From positions 7,150,261-7,214,260 of the forward strand of contig NC_133114.1 of NCBI RefSeq assembly GCF_022965805.1: 64,000 nucleotides of DNA. Direction: 5' to 3'. Position 1 is the stretch's first letter, and each line of letters opens with the position of its first letter. Positions 1-64,000 of the stretch are shown in pieces. The notes beneath the pieces are model-generated. The model saw nothing but the letters and a program-made list of their open reading frames with translations, did not search any database and was not told where the DNA came from. Position numbers and translations under genes: made by a program. Source of the stretch: Primulina eburnea (lineage: Eukaryota > Streptophyta > Magnoliopsida > Lamiales > Gesneriaceae).

Positions 1-2250
1 TCACCTGTTTCAACCAGAACTCGCATTTTGACAATTTAGCATATAATTTCTCCGCCCTCAAAATTCTCAACACAGTTCTTAAATGAATATGATAACAAAA
101 TCATCCAGATATCTCGGAATGATGCGATTCATCAATCCCATAAATACCGCTGGTGCATTCGTCAAACCAAATGACATGACATAAATTCATAGTGTCCATA
201 CCTGGTTCTGAATGCAGTCTTAGAGATATCAGAGTCCCTGACTCTCAATTGATGGTATCCAGATCTCAAGTCGATCTTGGAATACACCGAAGAACCCTGC
301 AATTGATCAAACAAATCATCAATACGAGGCAATGGATATTTATTCTTTACCGTTGCCTTGTTCAGCTGCCGGTAGTCGATACAAAGTCTCATCGACCCGT
401 CCTTCTTTCTCACGAACAGTACTGGAGCACCCCAAGGAGATACACTTGGTCTAATATACCCCTTGGCCAGTAAATCCTCAAACTGTTCTTTCAACTCTTT
501 CAACTCGATCGGTGCCATCCTGTATGGAGCCCTAGAAATCGGAACTGTTCCTGGCATTAACTCAATGCTGAAGTCTATCTCTCGAATCGGAGGCAATCCA
601 GGAATCTCATCTGGAAAGACATCAGCAAACTCACACACCACTGGCAAATCCGCCAATGATGGGGTCGATTTCAGTAAATCAACTGAATATACCAGGAATC
701 CATCTGCTCCCTTCTGCAATAATCGAGTCATATTCATTGCAGATATCAAAGGAATTCTAGCACGAGAACCTTTACCATAAAATTTCCACTCCTCAGCCAT
801 TTCAGGTCTGAATCGAACTATCTTATGGAAGCAATCGACTGTAGCTCGGTACTTGGTCAACATATCGATACCGACAATACAATCAAAATCGGATAAACCA
901 AGCACAATACAATCTAACTCAATCGTATGCTCATCGTACTGCAGTATACCCGATTTAACAGATTTTACTGATATCACACCTGTTCCTAACGGAGACGTGA
1001 CAGATACTATAGTGGCTAATGACTCAACAGGCAATGAGTGCATTAATGCAAATCTCTCCGATATAAATGTATGAGATGCATCAGTATCAATCAGTACATA
1101 TGCAGGATAACCAGAAATAAAACAGTTACCTGCCACAACATCATCAGGTGCATCATGTGCCTGCTCCTCGGTCAACGCAAAAACTCTGGCCTGCTGTCTC
1201 GGAGGCTGGCTCACTGTCTGGCCCCCTCCTGGCCTCTGCTGTGACTGAGTAGGCGGTGCTGGCTGAAAAGTATGAACGGCAGATGGTCGTCTACCTGCCT
1301 GAGCCACTGATCCCGATGACTACAGCTGCCTGTGATCCCTGGGCACTCCTCTAGGGACATACTCGGGCAAAGTGTCCTTGCTGTCTACAAATACGACAGC
1401 TGCCAACCACTCCTCGGCACTGCTCTGTGGAATGCCTCCCTCCACAAGCACTACAGTACGGTCCTGTATAACTCTGGCCCTGACCGATCTGTCTAGAGCC
1501 ACTCGAACTAGACGAGCTAGTTCCAGATTTCTTGAATTGCTTCCCTCTAGCCTTCAAGAAATCCATCTTCCTGCTACTACTGCTGCCACCTTCAAATCGA
1601 GGAGGTGGTCGTTGTTGTCCCGATACTGGAAGCACAAACGAAGCCTCTCTCTGCCTCATCAGTCCTGCTTCGGCTCCCTTGGCTCTGTTCAAGGCATCGG
1701 TAAAATTGTTTGGCCTCCCGGTATTCACCAAGGTAAATATTTATGGATTTAGGCCATTTATAAACTGGTCCGCAATGGCCTCATCATGTTCAGCTACATG
1801 GGGAGCAAATCTCAAAAGTGTAGTGAACTTAGCCACATAATCCTCAATGTTTAACTGGCCTTGTCTCAAGTTCGCAAACTCGGCTCCTTTGTCCTTCCTA
1901 TAAGATACTGGAAAGAACCGTAGATAAAATTCAGACTTAAACACATTCCAGGTAATGGCCGTACCTCGTTGTTCCAATGCCCGTTTCATCGTGATCCACC
2001 AGTGTTTAGAAACATCATGCAACTGGTGTCCGATCAGTTTCACCCTCTTTTCCTCAGTATATTCCAAAGATTCGAACATCGCTTCAATATCGTCCAACCA
2101 ACTTTCACATTCCACGGAATTCTCCGTACCTTTCAAAGTCGGTGGATGAAAAGACTGAAATCTTTTCAACAGTTTCTCCATTGGTGTAGGAGTCACATCC
2201 ATGGGAGGATTCGATGTACTCCCATGTTCTGGTATTCTTCTCGGAGGCAT
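1..2250 (-). pseudogene. gag-pol pseudogene (Gag, protease, RT start), element 1
   Basis: Gag starts at the ATG complementary to 2248-2250 (MPPRRIPEHG). The capsid region, a Ser-rich linker and two Cys/His knuckles ([27 protein letters not shown]) follow. The protease motif reads [10 protein letters not shown], so the usual DTG is DTD. RT begins with [22 protein letters not shown]. Breaks seen by comparison with element 2: a Glu codon changed to TAA at 1741-1743, a Gln codon changed to TAG at 1351-1353, a one-base insertion near 1322 and a one-base deletion near 175. It cannot make a functional polyprotein. The intact ancestor would supply virus-like-particle protein plus protease, RT, RNase H and integrase. 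Confidence 0.93.
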
Positions 2251-2492
2251 ATCTAAAATCGAAAGGATTAGCAAACCCAAACCAAAGTTCTATTTCAGTC
2301 CTCCTCCGATCATCTTACTGCTGATCCATAATCGGCTCTGATTTGTTCTCAATAATACATGTTTTCAAATCAAGTCAGATAAATAGACAAACATGTATTA
2401 TAAAGCAGTAAATCATGCTAGAAATCAAAAGCAGGAAAGAAAACACATTCTACCCCGCTCACTAGCTCCTATCTCAATGTCAAGGATCTATC

Positions 2493-2504
2493 GCTCTGAT
2501 ACCA
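2493..2504 (-). other. Primer binding site, element 1
   Basis: On the minus strand this reads TGGTATCAGAGC, complementary to the 3' end of plant initiator Met tRNA. It is preceded by the five-base spacer ACAGG, as in elements 2, 3, H and G. Confidence 0.9.
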
Positions 2505-2509
2505 CCTGT

Positions 2510-2893
2510 ATTGTTTATATGATTGCATGTTTCGTTGATTTATACTGGGAGTATATTCTCACCGGTTTATCCGGTTGTTGTCTTGTCTGTATGTGTACTT
2601 GACAACAGGTGGGACAGGATCAGGGTCCAGGAGATGAAGAGAGAGATCGTGATTAGAGTGGTGGCACCGGACTTGGACTAGAGATAGGGTTGAACACTTG
2701 ATAGTAGTTGTCAAACCCTAGTTTGAATAAATGTTTGTGATACAGGACTTGTATTATATATACTGATATGTATATATGGTTTGATTTCACTACGTTCCGC
2801 ATTTTAAAAAGAAAAATTTTTAGACCCTGTTTTATAATTGATTAATTAGTCCCAAAGATGATTAAGAACTTGATTAGCGTCCGGGTCCCCACA
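2510..2893 (+). repeat. 5' LTR remnant of element 2
   Basis: This matches 9441-9823 of the 3' LTR and ends in CCCCACA directly before the primer spacer. The first 1.7 kb, including the U3 dyad array and TATA run, is missing, so this copy has no recognisable promoter. It keeps the CTGTTGTC-type hairpin (2575-2608, here with a T at the first base). Confidence 0.93.
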
Positions 2894-2898
2894 ACAGG

Positions 2899-2910
2899 TG
2901 GTATCAGAGC
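2899..2910 (+). other. Primer binding site, element 2
   Basis: TGGTATCAGAGC, complementary to initiator Met tRNA, five bases (ACAGG) after the LTR end. Confidence 0.93.
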
Positions 2911-3134
2911 GATAGATCCCTTAGACTGAGATAGAAGCTAGTGAGCGGGGTAGATTGATTTTCTTTCCTGCTTTTGATTGCTAGCATGATTCCTGTTTTA
3001 ATATATGCTACCTGAATTATCTGATATTGATATGGTATTGTATATTATTGGAATGGATCAGCTGTAAGATGATCCGAGGAGGATTGAAACTGGTAAGTGG
3101 TATTTGGAATTACTAACCTCTTCGATTATCAGAT

Positions 3135-6100
3135 ATGCCTCCGGGAAGGATACCAGAACAGGGAAGTACATCGAATCCTCCTATGGATGTGACCGCTACT
3201 CCAATGGAGCAATTGTTGAAAAGATTTCAATCATTCCATCCACCGACTTTGAAAGGGACGGAGAATTCCGTGGAATGTGAAAGTTGGTTGGACGATATTG
3301 AATCGTTGTTCGAATCTTTGGAATATACAGAGGAAAAGAGGGTGAAACTGATCGGACACCAGATGCATGACGTTGCTAAACACTGGTGGAACACGACAAA
3401 ACGGGCTTTGGAATTACGAGGTACGGCCATTACCTGGAATGTGTTTAAGACTGAATTTTATCTACGGTTCTTTCCAGTTTCATATAGGAAGGACAAGGGA
3501 GCCGAGTTTGCAAACTTGAGACAGGGCCAGTTAAACATTGAGGATTATGTGGCTAAGCTCTCTACTCTGCTCCGCTTTGCCCCTCATGTGGCTGGGAGTG
3601 ATGAGGCCGTTGCAGACCAGTTCATAAATGGTCTAAATCCTGAAATTTTTACCCTGGTAAACACTGGAAGGCCAAACAATTTCACTGATGCTCTGAATCG
3701 AGCTAAGGGAGCCGAAGCCGGATTGATAAGACAGAAAGAGGCTTCGTTTGTGCCTTCAGCACCGAGTTCACAGATGCCTCCACCATTTCCTCGATTTGAG
3801 AGTGGCGGTGGAAGTGGGAAGAAAGACTTCCTGAAGGCTAAGGGGAAGAAATTCAAGAAAGCTGGGAGTAGCTCCTCTAGTTCGAGTGGCTCTAGACAGA
3901 CTAGTCAGGGCCAGAGTTATATAGGACCATACTGTAGCACCTGTGGAGGGAGGCATTCCACAGAGCAGTGCAGAGGAGTGTTCGGCAACTGCCGCATCTG
4001 TAAACAGCATGGACACTTTACTCGAGTGTGTCCACAGAGAGGTGCCCAGGGATCACAGGCAGCTGAGTCATCGGGATCAGTGGCTCAGGCAGGTAGTCGA
4101 CCCTCTGCCGTTCATACTTTTCAGCCAGCACCGTCTACTCTGTCACAGCAGAGGCCAGGAGGGGGCCAGACAGCGAACCAGCCTCCTAGACAGCAGGCCC
4201 GATTGTTTGCTTTGACTGAGGAGCAAGCTCAGGATGCACCTGATGATGTCGTGGCAGGTAACTGTTTTATTTCTGGTTATCATGCATATGTACTGATTGA
4301 CACTGGCGCATCGCATACTTTCATTTCTGAGAGATTTGCATTGAGTTATGCGTTACCTGTTGAGTCATTGTCTGTGGTAGTGTCTATGTCTTCTCCGTTA
4401 GGGACAGGGTTGATGTCAGTGAAAATTGCTAAATCTAGTATACTGCAGTACGATGAGCATACGATTGAGTTAGACTGTATTGTACTTGGGATATCTGATT
4501 TTGATTGTATTATCGGTATTGATACATTAACCAAGTACAGAGCTACAGTTGATTGTTTCCACAAGATTGTACGATTCAGACCTGAAATGGCTGAGGAGTG
4601 GAAGTTTTACGGTAAGGGTTCTCGAGCCAGAATTCCTTTGATATCTGCAATGAATATGACACGATTATTGCAGAAAGGAGCGGATGGATTCCTGGTATAT
4701 TCAGTTGATTTACTGAAATCGAGCCCATCATTGGCGGATTTGCCTGTGGTGTGCGAATTTGCTGATGTCTTTCCAGACGAGATTCCTGGATTGCCTCCGA
4801 TTCGAGAGATAGACTTCAGCATTGAGTTAATGCCAGGAACAGTTCCGATTTCGAGAGCTCCTTACAGGATGGCACCGATCGAACTGAAAGAGTTAAAAGA
4901 AAAGTTGGAGGATTTACTGGCCAAGGGATATATTAGACCGAGTGTATCTCCTTGGGGTGCTCCAGTACTGTTCGTGAGAAAGAAGGACGGGTCGATGAGA
5001 CTTTGTATCGACTACCGGCAACTGAACAAGGCAACGGTAAAGAATAAATATCCATTGCCTCGTATTGATGATCTGTTTGATCAATTGCAAGGTTCATATG
5101 TGTATTCCAAGATTGACTTGAGATCTGGATACCATCAACTGAGAGTCAGGGATTCTGATATCTCAAAGACAGCATTCAGAACCAGGTATGGACACTATGA
5201 GTTTATTGTCATGCCTTTTGGTTTGACGAATGCACCGGCGGTGTTTATGGGATTGATGAACCGCGTATTTCAGAAATACTTGGATGATTTTGTTATCATA
5301 TTCATTGATGATATATTTATTTATTCAAAGAATATGATTGAACATGCTAATCATCTGAGGACTGTGTTGAGAATTTTGAGGGCTAGAGAAGCTGTATGCT
5401 AAGTTGTCGAAATGCGAGTTCTGGTTGAAACAGGTGGTGTTTTTGGGTCACATTATATCGGGAGACGGTATATTAGTTGATCCCAGTAAGGTTGAAGCCG
5501 TGATTTCTTGCCCAAGACCTACATCTGTGCCAGAAATTCGTAGTTTTATGGGTTTGGCAGGGTATTACCGACGTTTTATCCAAGATTTTTCGAGTATTGC
5601 AAAGCCTATTACACAGTTAACTCAGAAGAATGCTCCGTTTAACTGGTCTGAAGACTGTGAGACCAGTTTTCTGGAACTGAAGAAGAGATTGACCAGTGCG
5701 CCTGTGTTGACGATTCCTTCAGGCACTGGTGGATTTGTTGTTTACTGTGATGAATCTCACCGAGGATTGGGTTGTGTACTCATGCAGCGGGGGCATGTGA
5801 TTGCTTATGCCTCGAGACAGCTGAAATCCCACGAATCTCGTTACCCAATTCATGATCTTGAATTGGCAGCCATAGTCTTTGCACTGAAGATATGGCGACA
5901 TTATTTATACAGCGAGAAATTTGAAATCTATTCTGATCATAAGAGCTTGAAATATCTGTTTTCGCAATCAGAGTTGAATATGAGACAGCGGAGATGGCTA
6001 GATTTATTGAAATACTTTGATTGTGAGATTAAATACTATCCGGGAAAGTCAAATGCAGCAGCTGATGCACTAAGTCGAAAGGTATGTGCACTATCCTTAT

Positions 6101-7633
6101 CGACGATTGGTGTATCGAATTTTATTGAAGACTGCTGTTTGTCTGGATTAGCTTTTGAAACAGATCGTCAGCCTCTGAGATTATATGCAATTCGAGCTGA
6201 ACCAGAGTTGATATTGAGAATCAAGGAGGCCCAGAAAAGTGATCAGAATATACAGAAATCAATTGCTATGGTTAGAGCTGGACATCGATCGGAATACCAG
6301 GTTCAAAATGGTATTTTGTATGTGAATAATCGTCTTGTTGTGCCGAATGTTTCGGATTTGAGACAGCGAATACTGACAGAAGCGCACAACAGCCGATTTA
6401 GCATTCATCCTGGTGGCAGGAAAATGTACAATGATTTAAAGACACAGTATTGGTGGAAACAAATGAAGTCTGATGTGACTGAATTTGTAGCCAAGTGTCT
6501 GAATTTCCAACAGGTGAAGGCTGAAAGAAAGAAACCAGGAGGATTGTTACAGAGTTTGTCCATTCCAGAATGGAAATGAGATCACATTTTCATGGATTTT
6601 GTGACGCAGATTACCAAGATCCTCCCAAGGTTGTGATGCAATTTGGGTCGTGATTGATCGATTGACCAAATCTGCATGTTTTATTCCATACAAGATGACA
6701 TACCGATATGACCAGATGGCGGATATTTACATCAAGGAAGTGGTGAGACTGCACGGAGTGCCGAAGTCGATTGTTTCAGATCGAGATCCTCGATTTACTT
6801 CGCACTTCTGGCAGAGCCTGCAGCAAGCTCTTGGTACGAAGTTACATCTTAGTACCGCATATCATCCACAGACTGACGGACAGTCAGAGCGTACGATACA
6901 GACATTAGAAGATATGCTGAGAGCTGTAGTACTTGATTTTAGTACTAATTGGCAAGATGCATTGCCTCTTTGTGAGTTTTCGTACAACAATAGCTATCAA
7001 ACGAGTATTGAGATGGCACCATTTGAAGCGTTGTACGGGAAGAAATGTCGATCCCCTCTGTATTGGGATGATATCTCTGAAGTTCCTGAGACTGGACCTG
7101 ATATGATCAGAGATATGACTGAGAAGATAAAGCTGATTCAGAAGAAAATGAAGGCAGCTCAGGACAGACAAGCCAAATATGCCAACCTCAGACGACGACC
7201 GTTGGTATTCGAGGTAGGAGACCGAGTATTCTTGAAGATTTCTCCTTTCAGAGGTGTTGTCAGATTTGGCAAGAAAGGGAAGTTGTCTCCACGATACGTC
7301 GGTCCTTATGAGATTCTCGAGAGGATAGGAGATCGTGCCTATCGACTTGCTTTGCCGCCTTCATTATCTGGAATACATGATGTTTTTCATGTATCGATGC
7401 TGCGGAAGTATCTCCCTGATGATTCTCACGTTATTCAGTCAGACGAGACTGAGCTGGATGAGACATTGAGTTATGTCGAGAAACCGATCCGGATTATCGA
7501 TCGTAAAGAGAAACAGCTCAGAACAAAGACGATTCCTTTGGTGAAAGTTCAATGGACTCGTCATGGCACTGAAGAAGCTACGTGGGAGACTGAATCTGAT
7601 ATGAGACAGGAATTCCCAGCATTATTTTACTGA
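3135..7633 (+). pseudogene. gag-pol pseudogene with chromodomain, element 2
   Basis: Starts [10 protein letters not shown]. Domains by residue of the first frame: capsid about 60-160; two Cys/His knuckles about 265-300; protease [10 protein letters not shown] about 389; RT from about 550, with YRQLNKAT near 631 and the catalytic FIDD near 724. The frame then breaks. The second frame (5404-6579) carries the RT thumb and RNase H ([29 protein letters not shown]) and the integrase HHCC zinc finger. The third (6650-7633) carries the rest of the integrase core ([21 protein letters not shown]), the GPY/F module and a chromodomain-like end (IPLVKVQWTRHGTEEATWE). Breaks are a one-base insertion near 5383, Trp to TGA at 6577-6579 and a one-base insertion near 6610. 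The whole would be about 1500 codons in a single frame. Confidence 0.95.
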
Positions 7634-7731: not shown

Positions 7732-7861
7732 TGTAATGCCCGAGAATTTAATCCTGTTAATCCGTAATTATTGATTTATAATTTGATATGATTACGAAAG
7801 GATTAATCGGGACACGAAATACAAGTACGTGTGAAAAGTGTGTGTAAGTGTAAGGAGGCAG

Positions 7862-8155
7862 CACGCACATGCGCGGACCCATGCGCGCACATGCGCGCAT
7901 CGAACAGTGGGCTTCGCGCATATGCGCGGGTGATTGCGCGCATATGCGCGAAGGGGACAATAGCCCCCTTAAATTTCGATTGGCCCCGCGCATATGCGCC
8001 GATAGCGTGCGCGCATATGCGCGAGGCGAGGTGTGCAGCACGCGCCGAGACATGGTCTCGCGCATATGCGCGAAGACAATGCGCGCATATGCGCGAGAGG
8101 ATTTGCGCGGAATTTCAAGGCGACACGTATCATGTGCATGCAATATATATATATA
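7862..8155 (+). promoter_or_regulatory. U3 dyad array and TATA run, element 2 LTR
   Basis: Six exact GCGCATATGCGC palindromes start at 7916, 7938, 7988, 8011, 8060 and 8083, and two variants at 7863 and 7885. They fall into four pairs with starts 22, 22, 23 and 23 bp apart; the pairs repeat every 53, 72 and 72 bp. The last 14-bp arm ends at 8095, and the TATATATATATA run begins at 8144, 48 bases on. This is the likely core promoter of the retrotransposon, but no transcription start is visible from sequence alone. Confidence 0.8.
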
Positions 8156-8998
8156 CAATCGTTTCCTCAGAAGAATAAAGAAAAAGAATTGGAGAGGAAA
8201 CGTTGTTCTTGATTTTAGAATTCAATCGTGCGATCAATCCGTCCATCTGAATTATAATCCGACTTCGGTACTGTTATCCTATTGACGTAGGCTACACTTT
8301 GACGTAAGTTTTGCTAAGTTTTGACATGCTTTGAAATTATGCTATGGTCAGAATTTAATAGGATTCAGATATGTTGTTCTTGACATGTTAGACATCATAG
8401 AATCGAAGTCAGATTAAGAAATAGACTGATTATGGAATTGTTATGAATTTCTGATTATAATCGGTTGATATCGGACAGATTTAGATTATGGATTGATTAT
8501 AGATTGTACTGGATATGAGTTATGGATTGTAAACTGTTATCTGGTGTATTGGTATTGACGGGGATATTGGAATTGTACCGTTATACCGTTGATTTTGAAT
8601 TAAATCCAGATTGATCAGATTGTTATGGAATTGACTGGTATATTGATATGAGATTATTGATATTGTCAGTACCAGACAGAGTGTGAGTTCAGGACGTTGA
8701 CTGAGCCAGAAACCGACGAAAGAAAGGTATAAGTCAATGTGGTATTGGGAGATGGACTTGAGTCGGTTTAGACTTGGGTTTCCCTAAATCACATACTTTA
8801 CTTTATCGCATTGATATTTGCATTGATTGATTGATATACTTGTTTTCTTGAGTTATAGATTACAGGTATTAGAAGAGTAATCTTATGACAGAAGTGCCGT
8901 TAGTGGTGGGATCACCACGGGCACATTACACGATGTCATAAGATTGTGTATTGGCGGATGTGCCAAAGACTGTCACTGGATGTTTGGCTATCGATGTG

Positions 8999-9300
8999 AT
9001 GGATAGGATGGTGGCTTTTTCTATTACTGTTAATCAGTATTGTATCGATGTGGATAGATTAGTAGCTCTTTTATTACTGTTAATCGATGTCATATCGATG
9101 TGGATAGAATTAGAGTTGCTTCTATTACTGTTAATCGGTACTATATTGATGTGGATAGAATAATAGCTTCCTCTATTACTGGTAATCGATACCGTATCGA
9201 TGTGAATAGAACTGGAGTCTTTTCTATTACTGTTGATCGATACCATATCGGCGTGGATAGAACTGGAGTCTTTTCTATTACTGCTAGTCGATATACGCAT
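8999..9300 (+). repeat. 51-bp minisatellite in the LTR of element 2
   Basis: About six degenerate units of 50-51 bp. Each has the pattern TGGATAGAA...TCTATTACTGTTAATCG...ATCGATG. The last two units are most alike. Element H has a different, about 20-bp tandem repeat at the corresponding LTR position. Confidence 0.85.
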
Positions 9301-9823
9301 GCCAACTTCTGGAATCGGGACCCCTAGACTAGGACTGAGTCTAGTCTTAATGATGTAGCTACGAGTATTGTCGACAGTTTGATATTGATTATGTTTCAGA
9401 CTTTGTTACATATATCTGTTACCTGATTACATGCTTTATATTGTTTATATGATTGCATGTTTCGTTGATTTATACTGGGAGTATATTCTCACCGGTTTAT
9501 CCGGCTGTTGTCTTGTCTGTATGTGTACTTGACAACAGGTGGGACATGATCAGGGTCCAGGAGATGAAGAGAGAGATCGTGATTAGAGTGGTGGCACCGG
9601 ACTTGGACTAGAGATAGGGTTGAACACTTGATAGTAGTTGTCAAACCCTAGTTTGAATAAATGTTTGTGATATAGGACTTGTATTATATATACTGATATG
9701 TATATATGGTTTGATTTCACTACGTGCCGCATTTTAAAAAGAAAAATTTTTAGACCCTGTTTTATAATTGATTAATTAGTCCCAAAGATGATTAAGAACT
9801 TGATTAGCGTCCGGGTCCCCACA

Positions 9824-9894
9824 ATCTCCCAATACCACATTGACTTATACCTTTCGTTTGTAGTCACGGTCTGAAGTAATCTCAATTCTGAACT
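9824..9894 (-). repeat. LTR X, distal fragment
   Basis: The first 32 bases are the reverse complement of 8727-8758 in element 2's LTR, so this is a minus-strand piece of a related LTR. It is continuous with 18320-19085 once element 3 and one copy of its target duplication are removed. The last five bases, GAACT (9890-9894), are element 3's left target duplication. The part of LTR X that should lie to the left is absent. Confidence 0.8.
9890..9894. other. Target site duplication of element 3, left copy
   Basis: GAACT, matching 18315-18319 exactly; five bases is the usual duplication for this class of integrase. Confidence 0.93.
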
Positions 9895-11671
9895 TGTGGG
9901 GACCCGGGCTCTAACCCAATTCTTTTGGGATTTAATTGGATCTTTGTTCGAAAATGTGGGTCAAAAATTTGCTTTTAACATTAATTCAAATGCAATAACT
10001 AAAGCATAACATATCTCGATAGAAATTAAACAACGTACTGTACATACAAGTCTGTTCGTACAAATATACACTAGTGTTCAAATAACCACTACAAACATAA
10101 GTGCTACAAGTCTAGTAGGAAACACTAGGAATCTTCCACGCCCGAGATCTCCACGCTATCAACTCTCTCTTCCTCGTCGTGACCCTGATCCTGCCCCACC
10201 TGTTGCCATGCACACATACAGACACGACAACAGCCGGATAACTCCGGTGAGAACATATCCCAGTATAAAACATGAATGCATGCAATGTAATAATCATGTA
10301 CAAAAGCATAGCATATATCAAATAACATGAATGTAAATCTAAGCATGTAGAAGAATACAAATCTGTATTCAACATTTAAATCTTGACTCGACTCATTTCT
10401 AATCTAGGGATCCCGGTGTGAATAAGACGGTCTGTCACCTACCCAGCCACTCGGGGTAACGGTACGTCTTATTCCTAGACTTCGGACAACTCTGTATCGA
10501 GGGTCTACACATATAGCAAATCTGTTCCTATGCGTCGATACACCGAAACGTCTAGTTGTGGCAAGTCTGCCAATATCTCCTATCTCAGGACTCGAATATA
10601 AATCAATAAACAAGACATTACATAATCAAATGTAATAAAAATCTCGTATGTGATTTAGGGAAACTCGTATCAAATCTGAATCGAGTTGTGCAATCCCAAG
10701 ACCACATGAATTATACCTTTCTTGTCGAATAGTCGGTGTCGTAGTCGAAGTCTCGAGTTCACGATAGCCAATACAAATCTAGAATGGCATAAAAAATGTG
10801 CACTTCAGTCAAATACGTCTCAAGCAAATCAATATACCAAACTAACATTGGTTCCAATGAAATTTGACGGCGTAACGGCGTAATTCTTTGATACCGCTCA
10901 ACTCAAACAATGATAATCTATCATAATTCATTTCTAATCTCATCAACACATAATTATACATGCTGAACTCTGTATCTACTCGATCCACACATGCTGGAAA
11001 ATCGCACCCATAGCACACGATATCCGAAAATCAATCTGATAACGAATCTATGATGCTCTATATACCAAGAACACCTTCAACAACATCACATTTCTCAACC
11101 ACATATATTTCAAATCATGCTAAAAGTGAACAATACTTACACCCTTGAGTAGCAAATGATGAGAGGAGTTCGAAACCGAAGTTGGATCTAAAAATTGATG
11201 GCTAAATCTTGAAAAAGCATAACTTGAAGCGATGACAAACTTGGAGAATTTGAAGTGATGCTCTCGGTTCTTTCTTGCTGATCTGATGAAGACAATGAGG
11301 TGTCATGCAAGCTTATATATATAACATGCCAAGTGTCAACATAAAAATCGAAGGTGGCATTTTCGCATGCAAACCGCGGGTGCGGCAACTCAAGAACGCG
11401 GGTGCGCTGTGCTCACGGCAAATTAATCTAACATTGCAACACCTAGACCGCAGGTGCGGTCCTTACATGACCGCGGGTGCGGTCTCACACCGCGGGTGCG
11501 GTCTTGCTTCGCACAATTTCACCCATTTCCAGTCAATGCACCGCGGGTGCTGTATCTCTAACACCGCGGGTGTGATGTAGCTTCGGCCCTGCTGCTCAAA
11601 ATCTCATAATTCATGCATTCCTATCTCTACAATTCCAATATCAATAATACCGATAATTCTCGAGCCTTACA
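9895..11671 (-). repeat. 3' LTR of element 3 (1777 bp)
   Basis: Ends TG...CA. On its own strand it starts TGTAAGGCTCGAG at 11671 and ends CCCCACA at 9895. It carries the dyad array, the TATA run and the CTGTTGTC/GGCAACAG hairpin (10200-10233). Confidence 0.95.
11313..11576 (-). promoter_or_regulatory. U3 dyad array and TATA run, 3' LTR of element 3
   Basis: Arms of the type ACCGCGGGTGCGGT (itself ACCGC-GGGT-GCGGT, a small stem-loop) start on the plus strand at 11373, 11395, 11447, 11470, 11489, 11540 and 11563. Pair spacings are 22, 23 and 23 bp, with one extra arm 19 bp after 11470. The TATA run (11313-11324) lies 48 bases beyond the arm at 11373, on the downstream side for the minus strand. 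Several arms are imperfect copies. Confidence 0.78.
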
Positions 11672-16551: not shown

Positions 16552-18314
16552 TGTGGGGACCCGGGCTCTAACCCAATTCTTTTGGGATTTAATTGGATCT
16601 TTGTTCGAAAATGTGGGTCAAAAATTTGCTTTTAACATTAATTCAAATGCAATAACTAAAGCATAACATATCTCGATAGAAATTAAACAACGTACTGTAC
16701 ATACAAGTCTGTTCGTACAAATATACACTAGTGTTCAAATAACCACTACAAACATAAGTGCTACAAGTCTAGTAGGAAACACTAGGAATCTTCCACGCCC
16801 GAGATCTCCACGCTATCAACTCTCTCTTCCTCGTCGTGACCCTGATCCTGCCCCACCTGTTGCCATGCACACATACAGACACGACAACAGCCGGATAACT
16901 CCGGTGAGAACATATCCCAGTATAAAACATGAATGCATGCAATGTAATAATCATGTACAAAAGCATAGCATATATCAAATAACATGAATGTAAATCTAAG
17001 CATGTAGAAGAATACAAATCTGTATTCAACATTTAAATCTTGACTCGACTCATTTCTAATCTAGGGATCCCGGTGTGAATAAGACGGTCTGTCACCTACC
17101 CAGCCACTCGGGGTAACGGTACGTCTTATTCCTAGACTTCGGTCAACTCTGTATCGAGGGTCTACACATATAGCAAATCTGCTCCTATGCGTCGATACAC
17201 CGAAACGTCTAGTTGTGGCAAGTCTGGCAATATCTCCTATCTCAGGACTCGAATATAAATCAATAAACAAGACATTACATAATCAAATGTAATAAAAATC
17301 TCGTATGTGATTTAGGGAAACTCGTATCAAATCTGAATCGAGTTGTGCAATCCCAAGACCACATGAATTATACCTTTCTTGTCGAATAGTCGGTGTCGTA
17401 GTCGAAGTCTCGAGTTCACGATAGCCAATACAAATCTGGAATGGCATAAACAATGTGCACTTCAGTCAAATACGTCTCAAGCAAATCAATATACCAAACT
17501 AACATTGGTTCCAATGAAATTTGACGGCATAACGGCGTAATTCTTTGATACCGCTCAACTCAAACAATGATAATCTATCATAATTCATTTCTAATCTCAT
17601 CAACACATAATTATACATGCTGAACTCTATATCTACTCGATCCACACATGCTGGAAAATCGCACCCATAGCACACGATATCCGAAAATCAATCTGATAAC
17701 GAATCTATGATGCTCTATATACCAAGAACACAATATCTTCAACAACATCACATTTCACCACCACATATATTTCAAATCATGCTAAAAGTGAACAATACTT
17801 ACACCCTTGAGTAGTAAATGATGAGAGGAGTTCGAAACCGAAGTTGGATCTAAAAATTGATGGCTAAATCTTGAAAAAGCATAACTTGAAGCGATGACAA
17901 ACTTGGAGAATTTGAAGTGATGCTCTCGGTTCTTTCTTGCTGATCTGATGAAGACAATGAGGTGTCATGCAAGCTTATATATATAACATGCCAAGTGTCA
18001 ACATAAAAATCGAAGGTGGCATTTTCGCATGCAAACCGCGGGTGCGGCAACTCAAGAACGCGGGTGCGCTGTGCTCACGGCAAATTAATCTAACATTGCA
18101 ACACCTACACCGCGGGTGCGGTCTTGCTAACACCGCGGGTGCGGTCTTGCTTCGCACAATTTCACCCATTTCCAGTCAATGCACCGCGGGTGCTGTATCT
18201 CTAACACCGCGGGTGCGATGTAGCTTCGGCCCTGCTGCTCAAAATCTCATAATTCATGCATTCTTATCTCTACAATTCCAATATCAATAATACCGATAAT
18301 TCTCGAGCCTTACA
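16552..18314 (-). repeat. 5' LTR of element 3 (1763 bp)
   Basis: Near-identical partner of 9895-11671. It includes the hairpin at 16857-16890. It differs mainly in having one fewer dyad arm and a few bases extra near 17730. Confidence 0.95.
17975..18219 (-). promoter_or_regulatory. U3 dyad array and TATA run, 5' LTR of element 3
   Basis: Exactly three arm pairs: starts at 18035/18057, 18109/18132 and 18183/18206 (22, 23, 23 bp), with pairs repeating every 74 bp. The TATA run at 17975-17986 is 48 bases from the nearest arm. As the upstream LTR, this copy would drive the element's full-length RNA. Confidence 0.8.
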
Positions 18315-18319
18315 GAACT
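18315..18319. other. Target site duplication of element 3, right copy
   Basis: GAACT, identical to 9890-9894. Confidence 0.93.
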
Positions 18320-19085
18320 CAAGACTGTCTTTGTAAATCTGAAATGACATACCGGGAATACTAATATCAATATTCCATTCCCGATTCAATACTGAATCTG
18401 GTTAATCTGGATTTAATTCCAAATCAACGGTATAACGGTACAATCCCGATATTCCCGTCAATACAGTATCACCAGACATCAATTACAAATCATAACCCAT
18501 ATCCGATACAGTTTGTAATCAGTCTATAATCCAAATCTAGTCAATTCACAATCCATATAATCAGAAATTCATAATAATTCCATAATCAGTCTGTTCTTTG
18601 ATTTGACTTCGATTCTATGATGTCTAACATGCCAAGAACATCATATATGAATTATATCAAATTCCTACAATATCATATTTTCAAATGATACCAGAACTCA
18701 ATAAAACTTACGTCCAGTTGTAGTTCGTGTCGAGAGGATTACGGTACTGCACTCGGATTCAAAATCAGACGTACGGATCCTTCAAAATCAAAATCTAAGC
18801 AACCTTAAAGCTTTGAGGGACTTTCTCGATTTTTCTTTGCTGTTGGTCTCGTAGGAATGAAGAACATATACATTATATATTTGCATGCAAGGACAAGTGT
18901 CATATTCAAGTCATAATTGCAATTTAGTCCCTCAACTTTTCACTATTTGCAAATTTGTCCCCGCTCAATCTTTTAATTCAATTTCAATCCTAATTAATTA
19001 CAAAAATCATGGAATTTAATTCATTATTCCAAGATTCATAAATTAAATAATCTCGTATTAAAATGATATAATCTCGGGCCTTACA
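18320..19085 (-). repeat. LTR X, proximal fragment
   Basis: On the minus strand it begins TGTAAGGCCCGAG at 19085, next to B1 LTR sequence. It is related to, but distinct from, the LTRs of elements 2 and 3. It shares the stretch around ACGTAAGTTTT and the T-rich tract, and has a TATATAT box near 18870, but lacks the GC dyad array. It may be the 5' LTR of element 1, which has the same orientation; that link is inference. Confidence 0.75.
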
Positions 19086-26761: not shown

Positions 26762-28470
26762 TGTGAGAACCCGAAAATTTCGACCGAAGTAAATCAAGTA
26801 AGTGATATAAAAATGATTCAGTAATTTTTGATTCAATTAAACTACTTGAATAATAATTTAAATCTCATCAAACTTAGCTTGAGAAAGTAGATTCTAAGCT
26901 TGGGGATTAGCTCAACAAGAGGCCAATCTACAAGTAACCGTATCCATTGAAGAGTTTTCGCGGGAGGAGTAAAACCCCAGCTCAAGGACGCAAACTTCCA
27001 GCTCGAGGAAGCTCAACCAAGCTTGTCCTAACAAGACTATAAAGGGAGCTAAAATGAGAGCTAAAAGCTTTGGACAAATTAAAGATGCAAGAGATGGCTT
27101 TTGAGTAAACCAAAAAGGGAGCTAAGGGCTTGAGCTAAGGGAAGGACAAATTCATGGTGTAAGAAATAACCATTGAGATTATCAAGGTGACTCATGGGGA
27201 TTATCAAAGCAATTAGTGCCTTTCTTGATCTCCAAGGGATCGGCCACTATGCTAGATGAAGGGTCATTCTTTGGCCTATAAATAGAAGACACCATGCCAT
27301 GCAAAACCTTGCAATCACCAAGCCAAAAATATTCGGCCACTTCCCCATCCACTCTTCAAAAATTTTCGGTCCTCCCCCATCCCACATAAGTCACGGCCGA
27401 AATAAAGAGAAGCGAAGGAAATCCTGTTCGTGCAATCAGAAGTTGCAATTCTGCGTCACAGTGCTGCCCGATCGAAGACTACATTCGCCAAAGACACGCC
27501 GAAGTGCTGCCGAAATTTTGAGAAGGAAGCTTCACTCAAAAATCTACAAGTAAGTGGGCTTTTGAATATGTACTTCAATTCTATTTTTAAACTTGATATG
27601 AAATAATGTGACATGCATGCTAGTGTGTCATTTTCAAAAATCAGTGTGGATAAACTTTAAAATTTCGATCGATTATTCTTTTTGTACTTCGAATTTCTTG
27701 GTTCCGCTGTGTCAGTATGAACAACTTTGAAATCTGAATATCTATAAAGTTCTGTCTATGACTTCTGAATTCTGTTTTCACTGTTACGAGTCAATTTGAA
27801 ATGGGACGAGAATTGTAATTCTGTCTGGCCCCCATTGGTGGGTATAAAACCATGTTCTGTCTGGCCCCCATTGGTGGGTATAAAACCATGTTCTGGCCTC
27901 ACCCCTTAGAGGACTAACATATTGGGGACAATTTGACCATGAATATGAGATGAGTAACAGTGTTATGTTCTGTCTGTTCTGATTGTTCTGTTCCGAATAG
28001 AAATGATCTGTATAGCTTCTGTTTATGTTCTGAATCATTTGATAAGTTCTGTCTCTTATTCGATTCGTTTCCGTTGTGTCAAGTTAAGAATATTAAGCTT
28101 TGAAAGAGAATGTTTTAAGAAAACTAAGTTCTATATGTATCTTTGGAATCGATCGACCCCCACTTGCTGAGTGTTTTCCCAAAACACTCACCCCTTACAA
28201 ATTTCAGATAAGAACGAGGAACAACTGAATGAGGAAGAGCAAGATGCCTTCTGGGGTTGGTGAATCAGAGATCAAGATCAGAATTCAACATTTTACTTTT
28301 CTTTCGTTTCCGCTATTAGAAACTCTGATGTATTTTATTCCTTTGTCATTGTAAGACAATATTTCATTTATGAAAAAGACTGGTTTGATTTGATACGAGG
28401 CTTTATTGTTTTCAATTTAATTGTTAAACAATGCCGGATGTCACCGATGCTTCGGACTCGGGGCGTGACA
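26762..28470 (+). repeat. 5' LTR of element D (1709 bp)
   Basis: TGTGAGAACCCG to GGGGCGTGACA. Contains a clear TATA box, TATAAATA, at 27277-27284, and a 36-bp direct duplication at about 27821-27893 (TCTGTCTGGCCCCC...). It has no GC dyad array. An 84-codon ORF after the TATA box is identical in both LTRs and I regard it as chance. Confidence 0.96.
27277..27284 (+). promoter_or_regulatory. TATA box of element D
   Basis: TATAAATA in GGCCTATAAATAGAAG, a textbook plant TATA box; repeated at 33544-33551 in the 3' LTR. Confidence 0.8.
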
Positions 28471-33028: not shown

Positions 33029-34737
33029 TGTGAGAACCCGAAAATTTCGACCGAAGTAAATCAAGTAAGTGATATAAAAATGATTCAGTAATTTTTGATT
33101 CAATTAAACTACTTGAATAATAATTTAAATCTCATCAAACTTAGCTTGAGAAAGTAGATTCTAAGCTTGGGGATTAGCTCAACAAGAGGCCAATCTACAA
33201 GTAACCGTATCCATTGAAGAGTTTTCGCGGGAGGAGTAAAACCCCAGCTCAAGGACGCAAACTTCCAGCTCGAGGAAGCTCAACCAAGCTTGTCCTAACA
33301 AGACTATAAAGGGAGCTAAAATGAGAGCTAAAAGCTTTGGACAAATTAAAGATGCAAGAGATGGCTTTTGAGTAAACCAAAAAGGGAGCTAAGGGCTTGA
33401 GCTAAGGGAAGGACAAATTCATGGTGTAAGAAATAACCATTGAGATTATCAAGGTGACTCATGGGGATTATCAAAGCAATTAGTGCCTTTCTTGATCTCC
33501 AAGGGATCGGCCACTATGCTAGATGAAGGGTCATTCTTTGGCCTATAAATAGAAGACACCATGCCATGCAAAACCTTGCAATCACCAAGCCAAAAATATT
33601 CGGCCACTTCCCCATCCACTCTTCAAAAATTTTCGGTCCTCCCCCATCCCACATAAGTCACGGCCGAAATAAAGAGAAGCGAAGGAAATCCTGTTCGTGC
33701 AATCAGAAGTTGCAATTCTGCGTCACAGTGCTGCCCGATCGAAGACTACATTCGCCAAAGACACGCCGAAGTGCTGCCGAAATTTTGAGAAGGAAGCTTC
33801 ACTCAAAAATCTACAAGTAAGTGGGCTTTTGAATATGTACTTCAATTCTATTTTTAAACTTGATATGAAATAATGTGACATGCATGCTAGTGTGTCATTT
33901 TCAAAAATCAGTGTGGATAAACTTTAAAATTTCGATCGATTATTCTTTTTGTACTTCGAATTTCTTGGTTCCGCTGTGTCAGTATGAACAACTTTGAAAT
34001 CTGAATATCTATAAAGTTCTGTCTATGACTTCTGAATTCTGTTTTCACTGTTACGAGTCAATTTGAAATGGGACGAGAATTGTAATTCTGTCTGGCCCCC
34101 ATTGGTGGGTATAAAACCATGTTTTGTCTGGCCCCCATTGGTGGGTATAAAACCATGTTCTGGCCTCACCCCTTAGAGGACTAACATATTGGGGACAATT
34201 TGACCATGAATATGAGATGAGTAACAGTGTTATGTTCTGTCTGTTCTGATTGTTCTGTTCCGAATAGAAATGATCTGTATAGCTTCTGTTTATGTTCTGA
34301 ATCATTTGATAAGTTCTGTCTCTTATTCGATTCGTTTCCGTTGTGTCAAGTTAAGAATATTAAGCTTTGAAAGAGAATGTTTTAAGAAAACTAAGTTCTA
34401 TATGTATCTTTGGAATCGATCGACCCCCACTTGCTGAGTGTTTTCCCAAAACACTCACCCCTTACAAATTTCAGATAAGAACGAGGAACAACTGAATGAG
34501 GAAGAGCAAGATGCCTTCTGGGGTTGGTGAATCAGAGATCAAGATCAGAATTCAACATTTTACTTTTCTTTCGTTTCCGCTATTAGAAACTCTGATGTAT
34601 TTTATTCCTTTGTCATTGTAAGACAATATTTCATTTATGAAAAAGACTGGTTTGATTTGATACGAGGCTTTATTGTTTTCAATTTAATTGTTAAACAATG
34701 CCGGATGTCACCGATGCTTCGGACTCGGGGCGTGACA
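33029..34737 (+). repeat. 3' LTR of element D (1709 bp)
   Basis: Same length and, by eye, same sequence as 26762-28470 apart from one base. TATA box at 33544-33551. Confidence 0.96.
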
Positions 34738-43794: not shown

Positions 43795-45110
43795 ACGGTG
43801 TCAAGTTTTAATACTAGTATGAGTACAAATATCGATCTCACAAAGAATAATTATTTAAAATTGTATATTAAGTACCATAGTTGACATAGTTCAACTTTAT
43901 TTAGAAAATTCAAATAGATAGTTGATAAACAATTCAAAGCAAATAACGAATCCTATTAATTCTTAGCAAACTGTTGGGATTCAGTTAGTAGATCAATCTA
44001 GAGATATGATTTCGTATGGTCTCCCATATGCTAATTTAAATTGACTAACATATTATTAAATTGCATCATGTTTAATAACTAAGAACTCGCAATTTCCTAT
44101 TCCCTTTTTCAAGTGATAAATAAAACTGTACTACCTATTATCGATTTTAATATGTTAAATCAAAATCACATAACACGTAATAAATGCAAAAAAGGTTCTC
44201 TTTATGGATTTGTCAGAGTTATACGTCTTTTGCACGTTATAAACATCTCACGATGTGATTTCCCTTGTCCTAATTTCAATCACCTCTCTCGAGTGTTAGA
44301 TCTTAATTATTTGATCAATCGAATTATGGCCAGTAATTCAAAAGCATTAACGACGAGAAATCACAAATAAACGCGATGAATTAATTGAATGAAAATTCAA
44401 AACTTCAATAACATAGGTTCGACCACGACTACGTCAATCTCTAGAAAATAAAATTAGTTCATACTCGAATCCAAATCAATAAAAAACCTGTTTGTAATCA
44501 TTAAAAACGTAAAAGTAAAGAACCGAATTAGAAACGTGTTGAAGAGAGATGAAAGTGCGTCTCTGTGTCCGGATTAAGGGTCTTATGTCTCCGTTCTTCG
44601 CGTTCCGTCCTCCGCTCTCACTTTTTCTCTCCTTTCTTCTCTATTACGTCGGCTGTTTGTTAGTCCCTTTTCTCTTTTTTTTCCTTCCTTGTAAAGCCCA
44701 CGATGAAACCTACAGAATTTGGCATTCGTGTCGCGCGCATATGCGCGCCCTAAACTCGTGCATATGCGCGGGTCCTTATGTGAATGCTTTTCTTCTCGCG
44801 TGCATATGCGCGCCCAAGTTCCTTGCATATGCACGAGACTCTCTGGCTTGTGCGTCTGGAGTTCCTTCTTGCGCGCATATGCGCGCTCGAGACTCGAGCA
44901 TATGTGCGGGTCTTTCTGCCTCTATGATGGGGCATGCGCAAAAATTTCTTCTAAGCGCCATTTTCACTCCTTCTCGTGCCCATGTAGTAGCCTTACCTAG
45001 ATTCCTGCAATCACACCAAAAATAACAAAAACGCATAATTCCGCCCATGAAAACTAACAATCTATATGAATTATAAGGATAATTTAAGTGCACAAAATGC
45101 ACTTATCAAA
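43795..45110. repeat. Unassigned repeat M with a GC dyad array
   Basis: 1.3 kb between the Copia remnant and the tRNA-like repeat. It starts near TGTACGGTGTCAAG with a stretch of the type found in dispersed plant repeats (AAATATCGATCTCACAAAG) and ends AATGCACTTATCA. TG...CA ends suggest an LTR or similar, but I see no primer site, polypurine tract or matching flanks. It holds no recognisable gene; the ORFs around 44550-45100 follow from the palindromic array. Confidence 0.45.
44734..44908. promoter_or_regulatory. Three dyad pairs of GCGCATATGCGC type in repeat M
   Basis: Core starts at 44735/44758, 44800/44823 and 44873/44896: each pair is 23 bp apart, and pairs repeat at 65 and 73 bp. Two cores are exact; the others differ by one to three bases. 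No TATA run is found 48 bases away on either side, unlike the gypsy LTR arrays. Confidence 0.65.
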
Positions 45111-52667: not shown

Positions 52668-52714
<47 letters not shown>

Positions 52715-52902
52715 CATGTAAATCGTACGTGGCTTCTACAAAATTTGCCAAAACACCACTCGCGCATATGCGCGCTTCATCTCGCGCATATGCGCCAAAG
52801 ATTCTGGAGCTGTCGCGCATATGCGCGCATTTTCTCGCGCATATGCGCGAGGGCTTCTGGACCCCTCGAGCATATGCGCGTGTTTCTTCGCGCATGTGCG
52901 CC
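52668..52902 (-). promoter_or_regulatory. U3 dyad array and TATA run, element H LTR
   Basis: GCGCATATGCGC cores start at 52762, 52784, 52815 and 52837, with variants at 52868 and 52890. The spacing is exactly 22, 31, 22, 31, 22 bp, that is three pairs on a 53-bp period. The (TA)n run (52668-52712) ends 48 bases from the last arm on the downstream side. The long TA run also looks like an expanded microsatellite. Confidence 0.8.
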
Positions 52903-53064
52903 GGATCATTTCTTTTGAGATGTTCGGTCGAACATCTCGAGATGTTCGGTTGAACATCTTGGCTTATATTATAACGATGCCCGACTTCTTCATTCAAGTT
53001 TGTATCACCTCAATCATGAAATTAATCAACGTATGATTACAGTAATTAAGTCTCGGGCATTACA

Positions 53065-55702: not shown

Positions 55703-56075
55703 TGTAATGCCCGAGACTTAATTATTGAAATCAGACGTGATTAATTGACATGATTGAGATCATACGAACTTGAATGAAGAAGTCGGGCCATTCCAAGACC
55801 AGATTGGGCAAAGCATATAAATTGTGCAAGTTTTGGACAGAACTATTGGCGCCCGAGCGGTAGAAAGTGACCGCCCGAGCTCCAATGTTCAACAAGAGCA
55901 TGGTTCGGGCAGAAGATGTGGCGCCCGGGCGGTAGTTTTTGACCGCCCGAGCGCCAATGTGTGTTAAGAAAATATGTCGACAGAAACTTCCGCGCCCGGG
56001 CGGTAAAGATTAACCGCCCGAGCGCCACCTGGAAAACATGAAATGTGCCACTCTTTGAAGCATGCAACGTGGGAG

Positions 56076-56108
<33 letters not shown>

Positions 56109-57764: not shown

Positions 57765-57769
57765 ACAGG

Positions 57770-57781
57770 TGGTATCAGAGC
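57770..57781 (+). other. Primer binding site, element G copy 2
   Basis: TGGTATCAGAGC, five bases (ACAGG) after LTR 1; repeated at 63911-63922 after LTR 2. Confidence 0.92.
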
Positions 57782-58095
57782 AATAGATCCTTTAGATTGA
57801 GATAGTCAGAATTGATAGATCTTTTAGAATTAGATAGTAGATAATGAGCGGGGTAGATTGAATTGTCTTCCTTGCATGTGATTGCTAGCATGAGATTTAT
57901 GTCAATGCTGACTTTCATGATGTGTGCTAGCATGATTTATTGCTTTCCCTATTACATGTCGTTTGTTATCTGAGTTGATTGCAGCACGTAATTACTAAGC
58001 CTGAATCAGAACCGAGTCTGGATCAGAAGTATATGATCAGAGGAGGGCTGAGACAGATTGTATAGATTATGTACTAATCTGTTTGATTATCAGAT

Positions 58096-61832: not shown

Positions 61833-62203
61833 TGTAATGCCCGAGACTTAATTATTGAAATCAGACGTGATTAATTGACATGATTGAGATTATACGAACT
61901 TGAATGAAGAAGTCGGGGCCATTCCAAGACCAGATTGGGCAAAGCATATAAATTGTGCAAGTTTTGGACAGAACTATTGGCGCCCGAGCGGTAGAAAGTG
62001 ACCGCCCGAGCGCCAATGTTCAACCAGAGCATGGTTCGGGCAGAAGATGTGGCGCCCGGGCGGTAGTTTTTGACCGCCTGAGCGCCAATGTGTGTTAAGA
62101 AAATATGTCGACAGAAACTTCCGCGCCCGGGCGGTAAAGATTAACCGCCCGAGCGCCACCTGGAAAACATGAAATGTGCCACGCTTTGAAGCATGCAACG
62201 TGG

Positions 62204-62249
<46 letters not shown>

Positions 62250-63905: not shown

Positions 63906-64000
63906 ACAGGTGGTATCAGAGCAATAGATCCTTTAGATTGAGATAGTCAGAATTGATAGATCTTTTAGAATTAGATAGTAGAGAATGAGCGGGGTAGATT
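63906..64000 (+). mobile_element. Start of a third G internal region
   Basis: ACAGG spacer, primer site (63911-63922) and leader, matching 57765-57859 almost base for base. It runs off the window, so the array continues to the right. Confidence 0.9.

What the first reader, a model, noticed from the sequence alone, without database searches (positions are those of the whole stretch)
7862..8155. Paired GC-rich dyads in a fixed 22-23 bp register upstream of the TATA run
Element 2's U3 has four pairs of 14-bp self-complementary arms (core GCGCATATGCGC). Pair members start 22-23 bp apart, and pairs repeat at 53, 72 and 72 bp, close to whole helical turns. The same geometry (14-bp arm, 8-9 base spacer, 14-bp arm, three or four times) recurs in the LTRs of elements 3, H and G and in repeat M. 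This looks like a protein-binding or DNA/RNA-folding module. I know of no described equivalent, but I could not search.
Basis: seen in the sequence. Interest (0 to 1): 0.9.

Follow-up and report, generated by a model that had tools for sequence, protein, structure and literature searches.

The report
Paired-dyad promoter ladder in retrotransposon LTRs
Several families of jumping genes in this plant genome carry, just upstream of their start-of-transcription signal, a ladder of short, nearly mirror-symmetric DNA sites in strictly spaced pairs, which looks like a shared, swappable docking array for an unknown protein that switches them on.

Summary
Element 2's U3 (7862-8095) has eight 14-bp dyads in four pairs spaced 22, 22, 23, 23 bp, and the pair geometry recurs in LTRs el3, G, M and H. 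The window lies in an 812-Mb plant genome where the el2 arm occurs 24,002 times and exact el3-type arm couples 40,059 times. Three arm classes share the frame CGC-N4-GCG with different centres (ATAT, GGGT, CCGA). Pair spacing is mostly 22-24 bp although spacers are nearly random. Pairs are joined by preferred linkers (31, 42-43, 49-53 bp). The proximal arm ends a median 48-49 bp before TATA in all three classes. Arms vary four to six times less than spacers in el2 and M copies (weaker in H). GGGT arms are head-to-tail 40,059 times against 37 inverted, so a two-arm hairpin is not the common function. H is another kind of LTR (Athila/Tat-like by recall) that aligns with the el2, el3, G and M LTRs over arm pairs only. 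Best reading: a modular upstream activating array read as double-stranded DNA by an oligomeric protein, probably the host's. The protein and any activity are unproven. No paper with these arms was found in the library searched.

The parts
7732..9823 (+). 3' LTR of element 2 (Tekay/Del-like chromovirus, name recalled); U3 holds the array, TATA run 8143-8155
   Evidence: chromodomain match after integrase in 6650-7633, below Pfam's cut-off
7862..7897 (+). pair 1: arms 7862-7875 and 7884-7897 (2 and 1 mismatches to the core)
   Evidence: the divergent first arm is itself kept in 25 of 30 copies
7915..7950 (+). pair 2: arms 7915-7928 and 7937-7950
7987..8023 (+). pair 3: arms 7987-8000 and 8010-8023
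8059..8095 (+). pair 4 (proximal to TATA): arms 8059-8072 and 8082-8095
8096..8155 (+). promoter-proximal stretch: GACACGT, CATGCA, then the TATA run 8143-8155
11373..11576 (-). el3 LTR A array, arms ACCGC-GGGT-GCGGT (as read on the + strand) at 11373, 11395, 11447, 11470, 11489 (extra arm), 11540, 11563; TATA at 11314-11323
18035..18219 (-). el3 LTR B array, arms at 18035, 18057, 18109, 18132, 18183, 18206 (pairs every 74 bp); TATA at 17976-17985
44734..44908 (-). H LTR array (LTR about 43767-45108, Athila/Tat-like by recall), arms at 44734, 44757, 44799, 44822, 44872, 44895
52761..52902 (-). G LTR array, arms at 52761, 52783, 52814, 52836, 52867, 52889; TATA run 52669-52712
55848..56026 (+). 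M LTR array (LTR from 55703), arms GGCGC-CCGA-GCGGT / ACCGC-CCGA-GCGCC and variants at 55848, 55870, 55920, 55942, 55991, 56013; TATA run 56076-56102
61979..62157 (+). M array in the second, near-identical LTR (from 61833); TATA run 62207-62243

Best explanation
The arms are an upstream activating array of the LTR promoter, read as double-stranded DNA. Each 14-bp arm (CGC-N4-GCG with a class-specific centre) is a binding site for one dimer of a sequence-specific protein, most likely a host transcription factor or a small family of them. Two dimers sit 22-23 bp apart, about two helical turns, on one face and contact each other. Two to five such pairs are joined by linkers of about three, four or five turns, and the last sits about 48-49 bp before TATA. 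Different LTR lineages reuse this array and exchange its arm class as a module. Shown here: sites, spacing, orientation, conservation, TATA offset and different arm classes between otherwise homologous LTRs. Inferred: that a protein binds, that it is a dimer, that it activates, and that it is the host's.
For: Arms vary less than their surroundings. In the el2 family (30 rows) mean pairwise difference is 0.023 in arms, 0.0895 in spacers and 0.162 between array and TATA, and CpG is kept in 860 of 890 arm cells against 144 of 220 right of the array. In M (19 rows; 18 of the 20 copies fetched plus the window's, L086 and L087 dropped by a length cut) it is 0.044 against 0.268. Spacing is constrained apart from sequence: spacers between paired arms are 28-35% identical between arrays while arms are 88-91% identical (arms were picked by their core, so part of that is built in), and 19 of 19 M rows keep 22 bp within pairs. 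Genome-wide, CGCGGGTGCG couples number 19,647 + 20,412 (reversed control 1 + 1); of the first 100 listed, with 31 spacings possible, 82 are at 22-24 bp. Orientation is 37 inverted against 40,059 direct. CGC-BNNN-GCG couples at 23 bp number 14,902 + 15,443 against 3,283 + 3,273 for the reversed pattern. The arm-to-TATA offset has median 48, 49, 49 and 48 in el2, GGGT, M and G where TATA was found. Distances in 24 clusters have their strongest period at 10.5 bp. The G and M LTRs are homologous on both sides of the array but carry different arm classes. The same core arm lies in H, which aligns with el2 and G over 36-42-bp arm pairs only, and with el3 and M not at all.
Against: No binding, expression or methylation data. 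The helical preference is modest under a strict null (27 and 41 of 2000 as strong). Neighbouring gaps alone fit 9.55 bp best (0.83; 10.5 bp gave 0.68), and in the GGGT sample the best period lay at the edge of the scan (24.85 bp, 0.56; 10.5 bp gave 0.55). 13 of 140 gaps in the 19 ATAT loci fall outside the preferred classes (8, 10, 13, 25, 28, 34, 40, 41, 41, 48, 54, 66, 68), and GGGT gaps include 17-20, 28, 37, 43, 72 and 75. In H the arms differ as much as the left flank (0.142 against 0.139), though less than the spacers (0.247). H has no clear TATA run after its array. One related LTR, at 18335-19085, has TATA and the proximal box but no arms. The reversed control is not small. No plant factor known to me binds CGC-N4-GCG.
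Confidence: 0.67

Rival explanations
1. Anti-silencing array: the arms recruit a factor that keeps the LTR free of DNA methylation, as VANC proteins do on motif arrays of VANDAL transposons. The factor could be encoded by some other element.
For: Motif-dense arrays in one orientation, change of arm class and number, like the VANC targets described in PMC5735166 (passages). CpG sites are kept in arms, as expected if arms escape methylation.
Against: Element 2 shows no extra ORF of 150 aa or more beyond gag-pol. The array sits at a fixed distance from TATA, which anti-silencing would not need. No pair rule is described in the VANC passages that I read.
Confidence: 0.15
2. A folding module: each pair forms a 14-17-bp hairpin in the 3' end of the element's RNA, or a DNA cruciform.
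For: Of 8 pairs folded as RNA, the 3 el2, 1 G and 2 M pairs give two-arm hairpins (z -4.8 to -7.2). In ATAT pairs the first base outside the arms is complementary in 0.63 of 70 pairs.
Against: GGGT couples keep the same spacing head-to-tail, 37 inverted against 40,059 direct. The two el3 pairs folded as single-arm hairpins only (z -2.8 and -1.2). GGGT centres are 0.93 identical directly and 0.04 complementary (7 pairs). M arms keep a direct CCGA centre that leaves a mismatch in the stem.
Confidence: 0.08
3. By-product of tandem duplication: short repeats expand by slippage and template switching, with no function.
For: Arm number differs between the two LTRs of el3 (one extra arm) and between relatives.
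Against: Spacers between arms are essentially random while spacing is fixed. Arms are under constraint in el2 and M. The odd first el2 arm is preserved rather than homogenised (25 of 30).
Confidence: 0.05
4. Nucleosome rotational positioning: GC-rich blocks at whole turns fix a nucleosome upstream of the promoter.
For: Distances favour multiples of 10.5 bp.
Against: It does not require a specific 14-bp motif, one orientation, or strict pairing.
Confidence: 0.05

Closest known systems
Heat-responsive elements in ONSEN/COPIA78 LTRs (PMC5059998, abstract and section 6 read)
   Same: Palindromic repeated factor sites in a plant LTR; the strong ONSEN element arose by duplication of a proto-site, other families gained theirs separately, and presence correlates with heat-induced transcription.
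   Different: Those are short clusters of nGAAn motifs for heat shock factors in Copia LTRs. Here the motif is CGC-N4-GCG, in 22-23-bp pairs over about 140-300 bp, with several arm classes, in Ty3/gypsy LTRs, with no known factor.
VANC-bound motif arrays of VANDAL transposons (PMC5735166, passages read)
   Same: Dense, same-orientation short motifs in noncoding TE DNA, evolving by tandem repeat change, with class shifts between relatives.
   Different: The VANC protein is encoded by the element and removes silencing on DNA transposons. No pair rule, TATA offset or dyad frame is described in the passages read.
Tnt1 BI/BII boxes and the as-1/ocs element (recalled, nothing read)
   Same: Repeated or paired factor sites in the U3 of a plant retrotransposon, or in a viral promoter.
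   Different: Different sequence, spacing and element lineage.
NRF-1 site of animals, YGCGCAYGCGCR (recalled, nothing read)
   Same: A CpG-rich dyad that looks much like the el2 arm.
   Different: Its centre is two bases shorter; to my knowledge plants lack NRF-1.

Membership tests
LTR-promoter upstream activating array (kind: repeated factor sites in U3) | lies in U3 upstream of the TATA box of an LTR | tested here: met
   LTR starts, polypurine tracts, primer sites and TATA runs located; median offset 48-49 bp in el2, GGGT, M and G; no clear TATA run in H
LTR-promoter upstream activating array (kind: repeated factor sites in U3) | sites conserved above surroundings | tested here: met
   (clear in el2 and M; in H below spacers but equal to the left flank)
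LTR-promoter upstream activating array (kind: repeated factor sites in U3) | bound by a factor and activates transcription | not testable with these tools
   needs binding and reporter assays
ONSEN-type heat-responsive elements | nGAAnnTTCn motifs | tested here: not met
   arms are CGC-N4-GCG
VANC anti-silencing arrays | element encodes the binding protein | tested here: inconclusive
   no extra ORF of 150 aa or more in element 2 beyond gag-pol; smaller ORFs and other elements not examined
VANC anti-silencing arrays | same-orientation motif array in noncoding DNA | tested here: met
   for the GGGT class; the ATAT centre is symmetric, so orientation says nothing there
Hairpin/cruciform module | paired arms inverted and complementary in all classes | tested here: not met
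Athila/Tat lineage (for H) | tRNA-Asp-type primer site TGGCGCCGTTGCCGGGGA (recalled) next to the LTR, and gypsy gag | tested here: inconclusive
   5 of 15 LTR ends (L056, L061, L063, L064, L066) continue with a close but inexact match; Retrotrans_gag E 5.7e-9 in L056 fits any gypsy; no RT was compared
Chromovirus (for element 2) | chromodomain after integrase | tested here: inconclusive
   Chromo E 7.7e-5 (23.0 bits, under the 25.1 cut-off) after SH3_Tf2-1 in 6650-7633

The most novel reading that the evidence does not exclude
One promoter grammar (CGC-N4-GCG dyads in 22-24-bp pairs, linkers of whole helical turns, last arm about 48 bp from TATA) runs the LTRs of distant Ty3/gypsy lineages in this genome. 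It is carried as an exchangeable cassette whose arm class changes while its geometry stays, because related members of an as yet unknown plant DNA-binding family read it as oligomers. The class exchange would be the trace of a contest over which host factor an element captures, or of elements escaping silencing aimed at one class.
Probability: 0.4. Interest if true: 0.8.

Novelty: new variant of a known kind. Interest (0 to 1): 0.65.

Why it matters
U3 promoters decide when the retrotransposons that fill plant genomes become active, yet few of their factors are known. Tens of thousands of copies of one strict grammar, in several arm classes, give a ready-made natural experiment: the factor can be pulled down with a two-arm probe, and spacing, phase and class can be tested one by one. 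Sharing by LTRs that otherwise do not align would show that promoters of these elements are modular, exchanged or drawn to one factor.

Tried and rejected
Hairpin as common function: rejected on orientation counts and folding. H as Copia: I first took H for Copia because of the neighbouring integrase ORF 42383-43666; relatives show a gypsy LTR with another primer site, so that claim was dropped; my notebook entries still carry the old claim. Rfam at gathering threshold: no hit in the window. Viral contigs: 0 hits for both pair patterns. A protein search with a chance reading frame through the el2 array gave 7 candidates and none at E<=1. Literature: looked for such arms or arrays, and for analogues; none listed a paper on these arms. 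One search searched four arm strings and two spellings of the frame; its two hits (listing only) are CRISPR papers holding CGCNNNNGCG. The M-class arm was not searched in print. Passages of three more papers were read: PMC10794571, PMC6911290 (palindromes as insertion targets) and PMC11963269 (tandem repeats between pol and 3' LTR); none of those passages describes this array. Evenly spread windows of the genome could not be fetched, so the samples are contig-1 sites in list order (19 ATAT loci, 20 GGGT regions) and best BLAST matches per family, which are neither random nor independent. The spacing list for the ATAT class and the long-linker list for GGGT did not complete.

Full report
What is there. 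The window is a mosaic of LTR retrotransposons in an 812-Mb plant genome (window = contig 14, 7150261-7214260; that it is a plant is my inference from the elements). Element 2 has gag-protease-RT, RNase H and integrase ORFs at 3135-7633, with a chromodomain match just under Pfam's cut-off. Its 3' LTR starts at 7732 after a polypurine tract, has a TATA run at 8143-8155 and ends at about 9823.

Chance. The core occurs 21 times in the window with up to two mismatches, against a mean of 0.58 in shuffles. CGC-N4-GCG occurs 37 times (shuffles: mean 1.5, maximum 6), with 15 couples 22-23 bp apart (0 in 200 shuffles). By the list, 36 of the 37 are in LTR arrays; the other, at 50174, is not. In the whole genome CGCGCATATGCGCG occurs 24,002 times, and the reversed pattern never.

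One frame, three classes. El2, G and H arms read CG-CGC-ATAT-GCG-CG with variants. El3 arms read AC-CGC-GGGT-GCG-GT. M arms read GG-CGC-CCGA-GCG-GT and AC-CGC-CCGA-GCG-CC. In 186 arms from the window and 19 loci, the ATAT-like centres vary in the middle two bases (ATAT, ATGT, ACAT, AGAT); these arms were selected for near-CGC-N4-GCG form and outer symmetry, which builds those letters in and leaves M arms out. LTRs with different classes are otherwise homologous: G and M are 90% identical over the first 86-87 bp and 75% over 263 aligned positions from the TATA run onward, and L098 (GGGT) is 81% identical to el2 (ATAT) over 85 positions at the LTR start. So the arm class changes as a module.

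Spacing. In 19 ATAT loci taken in list order from contig 1, 127 of 140 neighbouring gaps are 22-23, 31, 42-43 or 49-51 bp; the other 13 are 8, 10, 13, 25, 28, 34, 40, 41, 41, 48, 54, 66 and 68. Pairs mostly alternate with linkers; 22 distinct orders were seen among 24 clusters when the window is included, M left out by the filter. In the GGGT class, 20 regions in list order gave 22-24 (63 gaps), 50-53 (31), 17-20 (6), 30-31 (5), and 28, 37, 43, 72, 75 once each (one of the 20 regions, L106, holds the CCGA class instead; all were chosen for one 23-bp couple). Genome-wide, couples of exact GGGT arms 13-43 bp apart number 40,059; of the first 100 listed, 69 are at 23 bp, 7 at 24, 6 at 22, and 18 elsewhere (4 at 19, 3 at 17, 3 at 20, 2 at 42, and 28, 29, 30, 31, 40, 43 once each) (tallied by me from the listed coordinates). 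The looser pattern CGC-BNNN-GCG twice at 23 bp gave 14,902 + 15,443 against 3,283 + 3,273 for its reversed control. The sequence between paired arms is close to random, 28-35% identical between arrays, against 88-91% in arms (arms picked by core with up to 2 mismatches). A fixed length with free sequence is the mark of two bound bodies in contact.

Helical phase. All arm-to-arm distances up to 130 bp in 24 clusters have their strongest period at 10.5 bp (strength 0.65). If only the four gap classes are placed at random, 27 of 2000 trials reach this; with one cluster per architecture, 41 of 2000; with pair spacing held fixed, 19 of 2000 in both cases. Against this: neighbouring gaps alone fit 9.55 bp best (0.83, against 0.68 at 10.5), and in the GGGT sample the best value was at the edge of the scan (24.85 bp, 0.56) with 0.55 at 10.5. 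So whole-turn phasing is suggestive, not shown.

Constraint. In 30 el2-family U3 rows (the window's copy and 29 others) the mean pairwise difference is 0.023 in arms, 0.0895 in spacers, 0.0675 to the left, and 0.162 between array and TATA. CpG is kept in 860 of 890 arm cells, 211 of 238 spacer, 145 of 180 left and 144 of 220 right. The odd first arm CACGCACATGCGCG is itself kept in 25 of 30, which speaks against homogenisation. In M (19 rows: the window's and 18 of 20 fetched; L086 and L087, which carry an extra pair, fell below the length cut) it is 0.044 in arms against 0.268 in spacers, with 22 bp kept within pairs in 19 of 19. In H (13 rows: the window's and 12 of 14; L062 and L065 dropped) it is 0.142 in arms, 0.139 left, 0.247 spacers and 0.278 right, so H shows weaker constraint. 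Copies were chosen as best matches, which biases towards similarity overall.

Place in the promoter. The proximal arm ends 40-53 bp before TATA in 30 of 30 el2 copies (median 48). In the GGGT set, TATA was found in 14 of 21 sources, 11 of them at 45-53 (median 49; others 0, 94, 119). In the M set, 18 of 22 sources, 15 of them at 47-54 (median 49; others 0, 28, 74). In G it is 48 (1 of 1) (L106 was counted in both the GGGT and M sets). Between them lie a CCAC(GT) or GACAC box and CATGC or CATGT in 26 of 30, 10 of 14, 16 of 18 and 1 of 1. LTR X (18335-19085) keeps the boxes and TATA but has no arms, so the array is not obligatory.

Not a hairpin. Of eight pairs folded as RNA, the three el2, one G and two M pairs form two-arm hairpins (z -4.8 to -7.2); the two el3 pairs do not (z -2.8 and -1.2), each arm folding on itself instead. 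GGGT arms are head-to-tail in 40,059 couples and inverted in 37. In 70 distinct ATAT pairs the first outer base is complementary in 0.63, so a pair-level symmetry may exist there.

H. I first read H as Copia from the neighbouring ORF 42383-43666. Its relatives are LTRs beginning TGATAAGTGCATTTTGTGCA or near. Of 19 starts seen, five (L013, L023, L055, L058, L067) are preceded by a G-rich polypurine tract; of 15 ends seen, five (L056, L061, L063, L064, L066) continue with a close but inexact match to a tRNA-Asp-type primer site (site recalled), with a Retrotrans_gag domain in L056. By recall this points to the Athila/Tat branch of Ty3/gypsy. The el3, G and M LTRs have a TGGTATCAGAGC primer site (tRNA-Met type by recall). 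H aligns with el2 and G over 36-42-bp arm pairs only, and with el3 and M not at all at E 1e-3. So the array is shared by two unlike LTRs, by exchange or by convergence on one factor.

Mechanism. I read the array as an upstream activating array bound by an oligomeric DNA-binding protein, probably a host factor. Shown: sequence, spacing, orientation, constraint, promoter position, class difference between homologous LTRs. Inferred: binding, dimer, activation, host origin. The factor is unknown. An anti-silencing role like that of VANC arrays (PMC5735166, passages) cannot be excluded, and arms that stay unmethylated would also explain the kept CpG.

Known kinds. ONSEN heat elements (PMC5059998, abstract and section 6) show that plant LTRs gain repeated palindromic factor sites by duplication. 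The present array differs in motif, strict pairing, length, arm classes and lineage. No paper with these arms was found and 108 of the open-access library, which lacks most subscription journals.

Noticed in passing
52917-52959: In the G LTR, upstream of the array in U3 sense, a second dyad (GAGATGTTCGGTCGAACATCTC) is repeated in tandem at 22 bp, the same period as the arm pairs but another sequence.
   Followed up: no
2-5436: Inverted arrangement: internal regions of two related elements face away from a shared 386-bp LTR piece (2509-2894), with a primer site on each side.
   Followed up: partly
53065-57859 and 59196-64000: Two 4.8-kb stretches 99% identical; the M LTR is flanked by a polypurine tract on one side and a primer site on the other, as in a tandem LTR-internal-LTR array.
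   Followed up: partly
11447-11503: LTR A of element 3 holds one extra arm compared with LTR B, so arm number changes between the two LTRs of one element.
   Followed up: partly
9890-9894 and 18315-18319: Element 3 is flanked by the direct repeat GAACT, a target site duplication.
   Followed up: yes
27819-27895 and 34089-34159: A 36-bp unit holding GGGTATAAAACC is present in two tandem copies in both LTRs of another element.
   Followed up: no
9017-9293: Tandem array of 51-bp units downstream of TATA in element 2's LTR.
   Followed up: no
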